64,000 nucleotides of DNA from Gemmatimonadota bacterium (GTDB lineage Bacteria > Gemmatimonadota > Gemmatimonadetes > Longimicrobiales > Gaopeijiaceae): assembly GCA_022827345.1 (NCBI GenBank), contig JAJDTB010000009.1, positions 62,001 through 126,000 on the forward strand, read 5' to 3'. How positions within the stretch are numbered: the first letter of the stretch is position 1; each line of letters opens with the position of its first letter. Positions 12,870 to 44,059 of this stretch are shown here, piece by piece. The notes beneath the pieces are model-generated. The model searched no databases and was not told where the DNA came from. It saw only the letters and a list, made by a program, of their open reading frames with translations. A program made the position numbers and the translations under genes.

Positions 12870-12903
12870 TTGTCCGCCACTTTCGCCCATTTTTGGCCAA
12901 CAA
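12870..12903. repeat. 34-bp near-palindromic element, intergenic copy 1
   Basis: The copy starts TTGTCCGCCA and ends TGGCCAACAA, with a 14-nt centre. The same arms at the same spacing occur at 19810 and three times at 42906-43041. The arms are inverted repeats apart from one or two mismatches. This copy has one substitution (A for G) in the right arm. It lies between the stop of the TonB-plug gene and the start of the DinB gene. Confidence 0.8.
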
Positions 12904-19809: not shown

Positions 19810-19843
19810 TTGTCCGCCAAATCCGGGCAATTCTGGCCGACAA
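19810..19843. repeat. 34-bp near-palindromic element, intergenic copy 2
   Basis: Arms TTGTCCGCCA (19810-19819) and TGGCCGACAA (19834-19843) around a 14-nt centre. The arms are identical to those of the three tandem copies in the PIG-L gene. It lies between the amidase and the MNT nucleotidyltransferase genes, which converge here. Confidence 0.82.
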
Positions 19844-37800: not shown

Positions 37801-39240
37801 TCACTCCAATTCCGGCAACACATTCTTCTGCAGCCGGCACATCTCGTCGATCAAGGCCACCGATTGCCGGTAGGACTCGGTCGTGGGATCCAGGAGCAGC
37901 GCCTGGAGGAGGGGGCGCCGCGAGCGGGATGCGAAAGCGTCCACGAGGAGCCGGTTGATGCTGACCTGGGTGCGCAGCAGCGCCAGGATGCCCTCGGGCA
38001 GCGGCTTCATGGTGAACGGGTGCAATCCAGATGCACATGCTCTGGCCGGAACCTCTACGACCGCGCCGTCGGGCAGGCCCGGGATGCAGGCCACGTTGGG
38101 AACGTTGACCGCGTCCAGGTAGCGCTTCTTGCCGCAAAGGACTCCTTCGAGAAGGGGGACGGCGAGTTCGCCGGAAGGTGACAGGGGCGCATCTGCGGAC
38201 GACTGCGTGTCGGTGCCCGCATCGCCCTCGTGCTCCTGCCGGATGTCCCGCGCAGGCTCCTGCCGGCCGTCCCGCGCACGCTCCTCGCGGCTGCCCCGCG
38301 CGCGCTCCCGCCGCTCCCCGGGGAACAGCGGCGTCTGGGTCGGATTATCGCCGAGGTTGTAGATCCAGGTGGGGACTTCGCCGGTCTCCCAGGGATGGCC
38401 ATCGGCCGGGTCGTAGAAGAACTGGAGCGCGCTGCTGGCGAGGAAGTCGCCCGCCCAGCGGATGTACTCGCCGATGTGATTGGCGCCGGGGCTGGGGAAG
38501 CGGCCGAAAACGCGGAAGAGGATGCGGCTGAGCGCGATCTCGTCCCAGTCGTGCATCAGGTCGCCGGTACGCTCGCGCTGGCGCAGCCGGGGGTAGAGGT
38601 CGTCGCCGGTTTCGCGGTCGGTCACGGATTCGAACCAGGAGAAGTGGTTCAGGCCGCTCGCGCGGGCGTCCAGGCGCTCGGGCGGGAGTTCCAGGATGCG
38701 CGCCATCTGCTCGATGCCGTGGAAGACGCCGTGGCACAGGCCGACTGTGCGGATGTCGCTCAGGCGGCTCACCGCTTCGCAGAGCTTGGTCAGGGGATTG
38801 GTGTAGTTGACGAGCCAGGCGTCCGGGCAGTGGCGTTCCATGGCGTGGGCGACGTCGACGGTCGGCCCCATGTTGCGGAGCGCGTGGAAGAGGCCGCCGG
38901 GCCCGCCGTTCTCGCCGTAGATCTGGCGGAAGCCGAAGGCGCGGGGCACGTGGAAGTCCTGTGCCCAGTAGAAGTAGCGGTTGATTTCGATCGAGAGGAT
39001 GACGGCGTCGGCGCCGGGGAGGGCGTCGGCCACGCGGGTGGAGCTCGTCACCGTGGCCGAGCGGTCCAGGCGGTGCGCGACGGCCTGGGCGTAGTCGGAC
39101 GCGCGCGGCAGCCCCGACGGGTCGATGTCGACCAGGGCGATCTCGATGCCGCTGTCGCAGAGGGGGTCGCTGAGGAGGATGTCGCGGATGGAGGCGGGGC
39201 CGAATTCGCGGCTGCCGGCGCCGACGAGGACGATCTTCAT
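37801..39240 (-). CDS. Glycoside hydrolase family 4-type NAD-dependent glycosidase with repeat insert
   Basis: A 479-residue enzyme of the GH4 alpha-glucosidase/6-phospho-glucosidase/alpha-galactosidase family. Members use NAD+ and a divalent metal in a redox-elimination mechanism. The N-terminal dinucleotide motif is VLVGAGSREFGP, followed by NYTNPLTKLCEAV, GLCHGVFHG (metal-binding Cys/His) and GLNHFSWF. Residues about 300-350 are a charged Arg/Glu-rich insert coded by a 24-nt tandem repeat, absent from ordinary GH4 enzymes. The ATG overlaps the upstream symporter stop as ATGA, so uptake and hydrolysis are coupled. The exact sugar is unknown. Confidence 0.87.
   Translation of the reverse strand: MKIVLVGAGSREFGPASIRDILLSDPLCDSGIEIALVDIDPSGLPRASDYAQAVAHRLDRSATVTSSTRVADALPGADAVILSIEINRYFYWAQDFHVPRAFGFRQIYGENGGPGGLFHALRNMGPTVDVAHAMERHCPDAWLVNYTNPLTKLCEAVSRLSDIRTVGLCHGVFHGIEQMARILELPPERLDARASGLNHFSWFESVTDRETGDDLYPRLRQRERTGDLMHDWDEIALSRILFRVFGRFPSPGANHIGEYIRWAGDFLASSALQFFYDPADGHPWETGEVPTWIYNLGDNPTQTPLFPGERRERARGSREERARDGRQEPARDIRQEHEGDAGTDTQSSADAPLSPSGELAVPLLEGVLCGKKRYLDAVNVPNVACIPGLPDGAVVEVPARACASGLHPFTMKPLPEGILALLRTQVSINRLLVDAFASRSRRPLLQALLLDPTTESYRQSVALIDEMCRLQKNVLPELE
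38232..38327 (+). repeat. 24-bp tandem repeat (4 units) inside the GH4 gene
   Basis: Four units start at 38232, 38256, 38280 and 38304, each opening GCTCC. They code on the minus strand for an octapeptide series of the type R-x-x-R-Q-E-x-A. The unit length is a multiple of three, so the frame is kept. Confidence 0.75.
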
Positions 39241-41108: not shown

Positions 41109-42905
41109 GATGCGCGCGCCCTATCCGCTCATCCGGCCGGCGGGCGCGGCCAGAGTACGTTGGACAGGATCCGGTACGCCCCCGGCACCCCGTACGGCAG
41201 CTGCCGGTGCAGCGCCAGCGCCAGGTAACTGTAGCGACCCGCTCCGACCTCCGCCGCCAGCCAGACGCCCAGCTGCGGCTCCTGGCCCGTGTCATGCGTT
41301 TCGACCAGCGGCGTGTACGCAGGATCCCATTCGGTGAAGAACTTCGAGCCCCGCTGCTCCAGCCAGCCGTCGAAATCGGCCGAGGAGATCCGGTTCGGGC
41401 CGGCCAGCAGCGGATGATCCGGTGCCAGCAATTCGACCGGCGCGTCCTCTTCCGACACTTCCTCCGCCCCCTGCGGCAGCGACGCCGGATAGGGCGCCAT
41501 CTCGCCCGGCACAAACTCCTGCGTCTGGTAGAGCACGACCACGTTGCCGCCGCCCCGCGAGTAGTCGAGCAGCCGCTGGTTGTTCTCGATCAGGTCGCGC
41601 CGAACCGCGTATGCGCGCGTCCCAACCACGATCGCGTCGAAACCCTCCAGCGCACCCCCGGTCAGGTCGGCCTCTCCAAGCAGCCGCACGGTCGCGCCGA
41701 GCGCTTCGATCGCCGCCGGCACCTGGTCCCCCACGCCCATCACATAGCCGACGGTCACGCCGTCGAGGGGCGCCGCCGCCACCGACCGGACCAGGGTGCT
41801 TGCCGGGTGCCGCAGCCTCGCGAGCGGCAGATCGCGATGGTCGATCGTCCGGTAGCCGGCGCGGTACTCGCGCTCGGTGCCGTCCCGCATGGCCCGCACG
41901 ACCGCATCGACTACAGCGTCGCCGGTCCAATCCGGGGCGGGTGTGATGGAGAAAAGAGCCTCGGCCACCTCGCCCCGGCTGCGGAAGCCGTGCCGCACCG
42001 AGGAGGGCGTCCCAGTCCAGCCTGCGGGAAGTTCGAGCCTCGCCTCGGCGGAAACATCCGGCGCATGGGCCTCCATCCGCACGAGAACCGGGATCGAGCG
42101 GCTGACGCCGCCATCACCCCCATCGCTCTCCCCAGGCACGATTCGCACGGCCGGGGTCATCGATACCGCCACCGGAGGCAGCACCTCCGCTCGCCGCGCA
42201 AGGGAACCGTACGGCGTGTTCGGCACCCATCCAACGATGGGTTGCGTCCGGGCCACCTCGATTCCGTCCACCACCAGGTCGAGCTCGGCGAAGAACCGGG
42301 GCGACCGCCATGGCAGATGCAAGGCTGAGGAGTCCGAGACCTGATAGTGGTTTGTCGCCAGTCCATCACGGTGGAAGTGCGGCCCCTCGGTCGCGGCATC
42401 GGCGGGAATCCGGACATCCGTTCGTCCGTCCGGTGAGACCTCCACGGCCTCGCCGCCGCCGGGAACAATCCGTGCCCCGACCACCTCGACGCGCCCGGGG
42501 ACCGCACTCTCGACCCGCACGACTACCCCCACCACCTCACCCGGCACGACCACCGCGCCCCCGGCGCCCGCCACGCCACCCCCCCCGCCGCCAGCCGCCG
42601 CCAACTCGGCCACCACCTCCACCCCCGCCGCGGCGACGATCGCGTCCTCGAACTGCCGCTCCTTCACGGCCAGCTGAAAGCCCATCTCCGCCGACACCCC
42701 CGCACCACCCCTCACGGCACGCAGCAACGCCAGCCCGCGCGCGAGCCCGGCCACCGAAGCCCCCGGCGCGGTGAAGTCGAAGTCGCGAACCACCTCGTCG
42801 ATGACCTCCTGCACATCCGCCAGCCGCCCGGCCACACCCGGATCGACCTCCTCGCCCAGGAGCGCCGGCAGCCCCGTGAGCCTGGTGTCGAGTCCGGCGA
42901 AGAAG

Positions 42906-43041
42906 TTGTCCGCCACTTGTGGCCCATTCTGGCCGACAACACCGATTCCCTGACCGTTGTCCGCCATATCGGGCCGATTCTGGCCGACAAACGCTCCATT
43001 TCGACCGTTGTCCGCCAATTCGGGCCCATTTTGGCCGACAA
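42906..43041. repeat. Three tandem 34-bp palindromic elements, 51-bp period, inside the PIG-L gene
   Basis: Copies at 42906-42939, 42957-42990 and 43008-43041 each begin TTGTCCGCCA and end TGGCCGACAA; the linkers are 17 nt. The 51-nt period keeps the frame and codes for V-G-Q-N-x-P-x-x-A-D-N units on the minus strand. Arms are identical to the intergenic copy at 19810 and nearly so to that at 12870. Confidence 0.88.
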
Positions 43042-43062
43042 ATCCACCCTCCCGCGGGCGGC

Positions 43063-43134
43063 CGCGTGGCTCCGGGTGGTTGCGTGGCTCCGGGCGGTTG
43101 CGTGGCTCCGGGCGGTCCCGTGGCTCCGGGCGGC
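43063..43134 (+). repeat. 18-bp tandem repeat (4 units) inside the PIG-L gene
   Basis: Units at 43063, 43081, 43099 and 43117 share the core CGTGGCTCCGGG. They code for the minus-strand hexapeptide series PEPRxR. They lie directly next to the three palindromic elements, so this segment has expanded by two separate repeat types. Confidence 0.82.
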
Positions 43135-44059
43135 CGCGTACCTCCTGCCCGGTCCCATCGAGCCGCTCGTACCAGTACACCTGCCCGCCGCCCCGCCTCA
43201 TCCGCCCCGACGTCTGCGACCGCTGCAGGCTCAGGCCGAGGCTCGCCCAGCGCTGGTAGGTGGTCCCGAGCGACGGAGAGTAGCCGTTCGCATCCACCGC
43301 GACGTGGTACGGCTCGCCCACGCGCACGCCGCCGCGATAGACCCGCGGCACCTGCCACGGCCGCAGCCCCTCGCGCGCGATCTGCTCCGGAAAACGGGTG
43401 GGATCGGCCGCCGCGGCGACCGCCTCCGGGGTGAGCACCCCTGCGCGTGATGGTTCCCGTGGCCGTCCCGCCGCGTCCCGTGAAAACGCGACACGACCGC
43501 GAACGGGCGATTGAGGCGGATCACGCGCACCATGTCCTCCAGGACGGCCTCGCGGTCCCAGCTCCGGAACGCCTCCTCGACGGACTTCGAGTAGCCGTAG
43601 TCGAGGGCGGTCGTGAAGTAGAGGTCGTCAAGGCCGTAGTAGCGCCCCGAGAGGACGAGTTCGCGGGTGCGGATCAGGCCCAGGCCGTCGAAGAGCTCGG
43701 GGCCGATCGCGTTGGCGCCCGCTTCGCCGCGGTTGAGGCTGAGCAGGGCGGTGCGGGCGCCCCAGCCGCGGCTGGCCAGGGTGAGCATGCCGGAGTGCTC
43801 GTCGTCGGGGTGGGCGGTGACGTGCAGGATGCTGGCCGTGGTGGCGAGCTTGCGGATCCGGTGCCAGGCGCCCGCCGCGCCGCGGTCGGGGTGCAGCTCC
43901 TCGCCGGGGATGGGGCGGGGGAAGGCGAGGACGCGGTCGGGGGTGGGCGGGGGCCGGGTCGCCGGTGGGACCTGCGCGGCTGGCCAGGCGTGGGCCGCGC
44001 CCGGCGTCGCCAGTGCGGCGATGGCCGCCAGGAAGACCCGTGCCGACATCCGCCGCTCC

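What the first reader, a model, noticed from the sequence alone, without database searches (positions are those of the whole stretch)
42906..43134. Two unrelated repeat types expanded side by side in the PIG-L linker
Directly next to the three palindromic elements are four 18-bp units coding PEPRxR. Both unit lengths are multiples of three. The segment sits between the catalytic domain and downstream sandwich domains, where extra length would be tolerated. This makes it a hotspot for in-frame repeat gain.
Basis: seen in the sequence. Interest (0 to 1): 0.5.

Follow-up and report, generated by a model that had tools for sequence, protein, structure and literature searches.

The report
Toxin-type DNA sites scattered genome-wide
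The three palindromes inside this enzyme gene belong to a family of nearly eighty similar DNA docking sites scattered over the chromosome of a sponge-associated bacterium, and the same kind of site sits beside genes for a Fic defence toxin in other bacterial phyla, so they are probably landing sites for a protein of that family.

Summary
Confirmed: three 34-bp palindromes with exact 51-bp period (42906-43041) and an 18-bp array (43055-43139, PEPRxR) lie in the PIG-L linker. 'Two repeats expanded in a hotspot' holds only in part: the 18-bp array is in 1 of 14 readable orthologs, palindromes in 7 of 14 and in other genes. The palindrome TTGTYSGCCA-N14-TGGCSRACAA has 78 copies in this genome and 0-57 in 22 congeners. 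At shared sites arms differ at 0.5% of positions (0.9% with three more found by synteny), cores and spacers at about 20%. Half-sites are 24 bp apart in 143 of 143 close pairs, neighbouring sites 51 bp apart in 48 of 55. Position-6 bases do not co-vary, so these look like protein-binding sites, not hairpins. The same sites, in a shared half-site grid, lie beside SoFic-type Fic genes in four phyla. Best reading: binding sites of a SoFic-family winged-helix protein, multiplied through the chromosome and kept by selection. Not shown: binding, the function of dispersed copies, or whether SoFic follows site number across species. The SoFic gene found here has an altered active-site motif and no intact site, and the plasmid SoFic nearest to the genus's own lacks the grid.

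The parts
42906..42939 (.). palindromic site 1 (10-bp arms, 14-bp core)
42957..42990 (.). palindromic site 2, 51 bp from site 1
43008..43041 (.). palindromic site 3, 51 bp from site 2
42940..42956 (.). 17-bp spacer; sequence differs between arrays, length usually conserved
42991..43007 (.). 17-bp spacer
43055..43139 (-). 18-bp tandem array coding PEPRxR, in 1 of 14 readable orthologs
41129..43438 (-). C-terminal part of the PIG-L protein gene carrying both repeats
43231..44049 (-). N-terminal PIG-L (PF02585) ORF, other frame
12870..12903 (.). single dispersed copy of the same site, between genes
19810..19843 (.). single dispersed copy of the same site, between convergent genes; absent in G009

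Best explanation
Each palindrome is a double-stranded DNA binding site for a dimeric Fic-family protein of the SoFic type, which carries a C-terminal winged helix-turn-helix. Two inverted 10-bp half-sites (TTGTYSGCCA), 24 bp apart, take the two winged helices of one dimer; neighbouring sites sit in near-constant register (51 bp, rarely 40 or 62), suggesting contacts between dimers along one face of the DNA. The ancestral place of such sites is beside the SoFic gene, presumably for autoregulation. In this sponge-associated genus they were multiplied to tens of dispersed copies, gained and lost as blocks, tolerated mainly at gene ends and in protein linkers where the frame coding xVGxx...xADN is acceptable, and kept intact by selection while present. 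The PIG-L linker holds one such array. Shown: the sites, their constancy, the selection signature and the adjacency to SoFic genes. Inferred: binding by the Fic protein and every function of the dispersed copies.
For: Copy number and strict architecture: (half-site distance 24 in 143 of 143 perfect pairs within 60 bp). Selection: fixed arm positions 3/640 changed against 123/560 in cores, 45/238 in spacers and 1302/13070 in flanks between G000 and G009 (Fisher p about 3e-42 against core plus spacer, 3e-24 against flanks); with the Y/R positions 8/720. Position 6 complementary in 77 of 157 sites, as expected by chance, so duplex half-sites rather than a hairpin. SoFic adjacency: G021 and G006 pairs directly upstream, Gemmatimonadota RHO2_bin_5 on both sides, Coriobacteriaceae (3' side), Niabella, gamma OY282378 (C-terminal piece only held) and gamma IMCC1989. 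PADLOC SoFic E 4.3e-92 to 1.9e-110 for five of six proteins scanned, 5.4e-20 for the sixth, IMCC1989. Half-site intervals 14,16,24,16,14 identical in three arrays of two phyla, with up to 2 mismatches per half-site allowed. 34-bp palindromes 69-70 bp apart before 5 of 14 plasmid SoFic genes. The model of the G021 protein matches SoFic 3zcn/3eqx best (TM 0.81/0.78) and its C-terminus has the element order of a winged HTH. Precedent: CccR binds 10-bp inverted half-sites (PMC9755527, passages); CbFic2 is regulated by DNA binding through its winged HTH (PMC10628234, abstract and passages).
Against: In G000 and G009, the two site-richest genomes of those searched, the SoFic gene found has HPFMDGNGP instead of HPFxDGNGR, and its upstream site is decayed (2 mismatches in G009; best 4 in G000, a score also reached in 2 of 68 control windows). 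G017 (31 sites by the pattern) has no SoFic at the syntenic place. 9 of 14 plasmid SoFic genes show no such grid; the five that do are the closest to the Niabella protein (48-58%), but the plasmid protein closest to G021's own (Novosphingobium, 45%) is among the nine. That grid criterion was set after seeing the sequences. Sites come and go as blocks, which also fits a mobile repeat. No binding has been measured; PMC10628234 states SoFic DNA binding had not been shown.
Confidence: 0.52

Rival explanations
1. A small mobile palindromic repeat (MITE or Rickettsia-palindromic-element-like) that inserts in frame and is tolerated in linkers.
For: Dispersed; five of eight G000 loci that could be checked by synteny (L010, L018, L086, L091, window 19810) lack the site in G009, with flanks 92-96% identical; clean absence in the GH gene of G002 and G015; 11 of 13 intragenic loci (grouped into orthologs by hand) in one reading frame.
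Against: At shared sites arms are nearly invariant while cores diverge about 22%, unlike a neutral insert; block lengths vary; Y1/RAYT transposase found in 0 of 23 genomes; arms are not kept complementary.
Confidence: 0.22
2. Binding site of a different chromosome-organising or global regulatory protein (Noc/SlmA/MatP-like), whose sites resemble the SoFic operator by common descent or by chance.
For: Tens of sites, often at gene ends, duplex half-sites, fixed register; in G021 all 24 sites (at most 2 mismatches) lie in one half of the chromosome around dnaA.
Against: The regional bias is weak when G000 arrays are mapped on G021: 11 of 17 mapped arrays inside that half, one on its edge, where 42.5% of the fetched sequence lies; 1 of 6 mapped control loci (of 20) inside. 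It does not explain the identical grid beside SoFic genes in other phyla.
Confidence: 0.16
3. Recombination site of a tyrosine recombinase (34 bp, 13-8-13 like loxP; the comparison is recalled).
For: Length and AT-rich positions 12-13/22-23; one array lies directly beside a tyrosine recombinase gene in G000.
Against: That recombinase is 81-82% conserved in site-poor G013, G015 and G002, and site-rich G009 and G021 have no close ortholog; tandem sites at 51 bp would be unstable under recombination (inference).
Confidence: 0.03
4. Transcription terminator or RNA hairpin.
For: Inverted repeat; 12 of 44 arrays in G000 lie between convergent genes.
Against: Position 6 complementary in only 77 of 157 sites; no Rfam match up to E 1 in 41129-44049; 10 of 44 G000 arrays inside predicted genes.
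Confidence: 0.03

Closest known systems
CccR operator of Yersinia pseudotuberculosis (Fic protein with C-terminal HTH; PMC9755527)
   Same: Fic-HTH dimer, two inverted 10-bp half-sites with a long gap, autoregulation
   Different: 26-bp gap and another half-site sequence; the authors found no such elements at the other genes it affects
SoFic / Sofic anti-phage Fic protein (3eqx, 3zcn; PMC12249575)
   Same: same protein family as the genes beside the sites; toxic dimer whose C-terminal domain controls activity
   Different: no DNA site described in what I read (abstract, Results, word search); neutralisation there is by the small protein AS1
CbFic2 of Coxiella burnetii (PMC10628234)
   Same: winged HTH whose DNA binding switches the Fic enzyme
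   Different: assayed with random DNA; no specific site in the passages read
Rickettsia palindromic elements (recalled; papers seen only as a listing)
   Same: palindromes inside open reading frames, kept in frame
   Different: longer and hairpin-forming (recalled); here arms are under strong selection without pairing constraint and sites are phased
Noc/SlmA/MatP chromosomal sites (recalled)
   Same: tens of conserved sites over the chromosome
   Different: 34-bp bipartite site, arrays in register, adjacency to SoFic genes

Membership tests
Operator-type site of SoFic-family Fic proteins | lies next to SoFic-family genes in unrelated genomes | tested here: met
   seven genomes, four phyla; IMCC1989 matches SoFic only weakly and for OY282378 only a C-terminal piece is held
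Operator-type site of SoFic-family Fic proteins | bipartite inverted half-sites in a conserved grid at those genes | tested here: met
   identical 14,16,24,16,14 grid in L229 and twice in L230; 69-70-bp period in 5 of 14 plasmid loci only
Operator-type site of SoFic-family Fic proteins | the protein has a winged-helix C-terminal domain | tested here: met
   model and match to SoFic structures for the G021 protein; DNA binding itself not tested
Operator-type site of SoFic-family Fic proteins | intact site beside the SoFic gene of this genome | tested here: not met
   best pseudo-site upstream of the G000 gene has 4 mismatches; other SoFic copies in G000 not searched for
Operator-type site of SoFic-family Fic proteins | protein binds the site | not testable with these tools
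   needs an in vitro assay
Operator-type site of SoFic-family Fic proteins | SoFic gene content follows site number across the genus | not tested
REP element with RAYT | Y1 transposase (PF01797) in the genome | tested here: not met
   0 of 23 genomes; control rang in 5 of 14 genomes
MITE / Rickettsia palindromic element | presence/absence as a discrete insert | tested here: met
   block absences; lengths vary, no constant duplication seen
MITE / Rickettsia palindromic element | pairing arms kept complementary | tested here: not met
   position 6 complementary in 77 of 157
Noc/SlmA-type chromosomal sites | depleted around the terminus | tested here: inconclusive
   G021 suggestive, G000 mapping weak
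Tyrosine-recombinase site | recombinase distribution follows the sites | tested here: not met
   for the one recombinase tested

The most novel reading that the evidence does not exclude
The chromosome itself serves as the antidote: dozens of dispersed sites hold SoFic-type dimers in a DNA-bound inactive state, so that loss of host DNA during phage attack releases the toxic form. In the site-richest species an altered Fic protein may survive purely as a DNA-binding, chromosome-coating factor on these phased arrays.
Probability: 0.1. Interest if true: 0.9.

Novelty: new variant of a known kind. Interest (0 to 1): 0.62.

Why it matters
It offers a concrete candidate DNA site for the SoFic defence proteins, whose DNA binding was stated in 2023 to be unproven (PMC10628234), and a case where what looks like a toxin operator has spread over a whole chromosome, into reading frames, under strong selection. 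Whether DNA regulates SoFic toxicity becomes directly testable with short oligonucleotides. It also warns that 'repeats' inside symbiont proteins can be DNA-level signals rather than protein features.

Tried and rejected
RAYT-mobilised REP: Y1_Tnp in 0 of 23 genomes. Tyrosine recombinase beside the L074 array: distribution does not fit. RNA family: no Rfam match up to E 1 in 41129-44049. Hairpin or terminator: no co-variation at position 6 (67 of 128, 77 of 157). Terminus exclusion: suggestive in G021, weak in G000. Viral contigs: 0 exact sites. The first pattern search had a 13-base core by mistake and found nothing. Plasmid SoFic genes: 0 of 14 have the TTGTYSGCCA site with 3 or fewer mismatches nearby; palindromes of all lengths are enriched upstream and 34 bp is not special over all 14; it stands out only with TTG/CAA ends, in 5 of 14 (Rhodobacter only with relaxed ends), a criterion set after seeing the sequences. 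Literature: in the listings of searches I saw no paper on these dispersed sites or a SoFic operator, CccR being the nearest; the library is open-access only.

Limits of the selection test. The 40 sites compared are those matching with at most 2 mismatches in both genomes and aligned in register, out of 46 G000 copies in 24 locus pairs; two pairs (L005/L106, L078/L109; 4 sites) are of doubtful orthology and were kept. In the second check 18 G000 locus queries were run against 14 further G009 stretches: 8 gave no hit (L006, L009, L013, L015, L084, L085, L088, window 12870), L073 and L074 had no usable alignment at their sites, and of the remaining 8, L090 was intact, L019 and L020 had 2 and 1 arm changes, and L010, L018, L086, L091 and window 19810 lacked the site. 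With the three shared sites arms are 6/688.

Full report
The observation. The finding is correct at its coordinates. Three 34-bp palindromes (42906, 42957, 43008) recur every 51 bp and an 18-bp array of 4.7 units follows at 43055-43139. Five sites exact to the pattern occur in the window and none with up to two mismatches in 20 Markov windows. On the minus strand they read FVGQNGPELADN-type units and PEPRxR units within the C-terminal part of a PIG-L protein. The gene is split between two frames near 43438 here, whereas the matches in G009, G021 and G017 lie in one open frame of 964-974 aa.

The two repeats are independent. Of 23 genomes of the genus, 15 gave a close PIG-L ortholog that I aligned (55-100% identical to the C-terminal part); G005 gave only a fragment and the others only distant paralogs. 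Of the 15, G007 is a fragment. Among the 14 with a readable linker the 18-bp array is present only in G000. Palindromes are present in G000, G009 and G021 (three each, one of G009's with an arm change), G017 and G006 (one each), and in altered form in G018 and G012. They are missing or unrecognisable in G015, G013, G002, G019, G004, G001 and G016. In G021 the two spacers are nearly identical, which suggests 51-bp tandem duplication. A tree of the protein without the linker places site-poor G015/G013/G002 as sister to site-rich G000/G009 (support 100/99), so a loss there is the simpler reading.

A genome-wide family. G000 has 78 sites with at most 3 mismatches against 1 for the reversed control pattern. 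Its 22 congeners have 0 to 57 (at most 2 mismatches; six have none), and genomes outside the genus almost none. Among perfect half-sites in genus loci facing each other within 60 bp the distance is 24 bp in 143 of 143 pairs. Adjacent sites in the genus are 51 bp apart in 48 of 55 pairs, orthologous arrays counted separately; the others are 50 (2), 40 (2), 53, 54 and 62. The 40/51/62 series differs by 11 bp, about one helical turn (inference). Core positions 12-13 and 22-23 are over 90% A/T, and 16-19 mostly G/C, over 128 sites.

Selection on the arms. Between G000 and G009, 40 sites in register differ at 3 of 640 fixed arm positions (8 of 720 with the Y/R positions), 13 of 80 S positions, 123 of 560 core positions, 45 of 238 spacer positions and 1302 of 13070 flank positions. 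These sites were chosen as matching in both genomes. A second, synteny-based look at G000 arrays could judge eight loci: one intact site, two with one or two arm changes, and five without the site in G009, flanks 92-96% identical; arms are then 6 of 688. So sites are gained or lost as blocks, and those that remain mostly keep their arms. The two S bases are complementary in 77 of 157 sites, which argues against a hairpin.

Where they lie. Of 44 arrays in G000, 10 lie inside predicted genes, 3 partly, 14 between tandem genes, 12 between convergent and 5 between divergent genes, by a simple codon-usage gene caller written here. Among 13 intragenic loci of four genomes, grouped into orthologs by hand, 11 use the same frame (p 2e-4). 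A second host gene, an MGH1-like glycoside hydrolase, shows in-frame arrays of 2, 2, 1, 1, 2 and 3 units in G000, G009, G017, G018 (one arm altered), G006 and G021, and none in G002 and G015. In the single-contig genome G021 (OX639991.1 by length) all 24 sites lie between 0.63 and 2.80 Mb; dnaA is at 1.41 Mb (dnaN and parAB beside it named by eye). Mapping of G000 arrays gives 11 of 17 in that stretch against 42.5% of the fetched sequence, and 1 of 6 mapped controls, so I treat this as open.

The link to SoFic. In dense stretches of G021 and G006 a pair of sites lies directly upstream of a Fic gene. Of 31 listed loci that I took as not sponge Gemmatimonadota, 24 matches lie inside a reading frame of at least 90 codons, most of which look like chance. 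L203, L229 and L258 have a Fic gene next to the site (L258 is one of the 24 only through an early alternative start), and L232 carries the C-terminus of one. L228, titled a gammaproteobacterium, has the same sequence as G033 of the window's own family. Gemmatimonadota L230 has sites on both sides of its Fic gene. Five of six proteins scanned match PADLOC SoFic at E 4.3e-92 or better; L203 only at 5.4e-20. The half-site intervals 14,16,24,16,14 are identical in the L229 array and both L230 arrays, allowing 2 mismatches per half-site (the window has 0.78 such half-sites per 200 bp), and L232 and L258 follow the same grid with gaps. On plasmids, SoFic genes of Riemerella, two Shinella, Paracoccus saliphilus and Rhodobacter have 34-bp palindromes with TTG/CAA ends (relaxed in Rhodobacter) 69-70 bp apart with other half-site sequences; the other nine do not (three such motifs in the 14 control windows). 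These five are nearest to the Niabella protein (48-58%); the one nearest to G021's (Novosphingobium, 45%) is among the nine. A model of the G021 protein (mean pLDDT 84.8, alignment of four) matches SoFic structures best and ends in the helix-strand-helix-helix-strand-strand order expected of a winged helix.

Against the link. G000 and G009 carry a SoFic gene (58% to G021's) with HPFMDGNGP in the Fic motif and a decayed site upstream; it evolves under constraint (dN 0.047, dS 0.175). G017 lacks SoFic at that place.

Literature. CccR, a Fic-HTH protein, represses its own promoter through AGATAATCAT-N26-ATGATAATCT (PMC9755527, abstract and passages). CbFic2 is switched by DNA binding through its winged HTH, and its authors write that SoFic DNA binding has not been shown (PMC10628234, abstract and passages). 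Sofic is a toxic dimer controlled by its C-terminal domain; the words winged, palindrome and transcription are not found in the main text of that paper (PMC12249575, abstract, Results section and word search). Of other papers I saw only listings.

Verdict. I file the palindromes as SoFic-type binding sites with 0.52 confidence, lowered from 0.55 on checking because the plasmid relative nearest to the genus's own protein lacks the grid; the freed odds went to the mobile-repeat and other-binder rivals. It is a new variant: a dispersed, phased, selected set. Its role is unknown. The boldest reading not excluded is that chromosomal DNA restrains the toxin.

Noticed in passing
window 38232-38313: A 24-bp x 3.4 tandem array (score 108) inside a minus-strand ORF coding Arg/Glu-rich units, another minisatellite of the PEPRxR kind.
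   Followed up: no
window near 43438: The PIG-L gene is broken between two frames; close orthologs are single frames. Assembly error or recent mutation not distinguished.
   Followed up: partly
L398:8322-9530 and L399:8004-9212: SoFic genes of G000 and G009 have P instead of R in HPFxDGNGR, yet evolve under constraint.
   Followed up: partly
L230:596-689 and 1908-2001: A SoFic gene bounded on both sides by the same six-half-site array, like the ends of a cassette.
   Followed up: partly
L074:4264-5371 (G000 C23): A tyrosine recombinase gene ends 1 bp before a pair of sites spaced 62 bp, on a 12.4-kb contig with at least six sites.
   Followed up: partly
L253:3872 and L259:2536: Gammaproteobacteria MAGs (SB0662_bin_11, SB0675_bin_31) with single sites of the dispersed type between genes in the same context.
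   Followed up: no
L168-L170, L171-L172: A dense cluster of sites shared by G021 and G006 around the SoFic gene.
   Followed up: yes
L249:2338-2401 and L236:878-971: Further grid-like half-site arrays (Coriobacteria RUG440, gamma OY282353) whose neighbouring genes were not identified as Fic.
   Followed up: no
L431:1396-3370: A plasmid SoFic-like Fic gene next to Hachiman HamA in Aminobacter.
   Followed up: no
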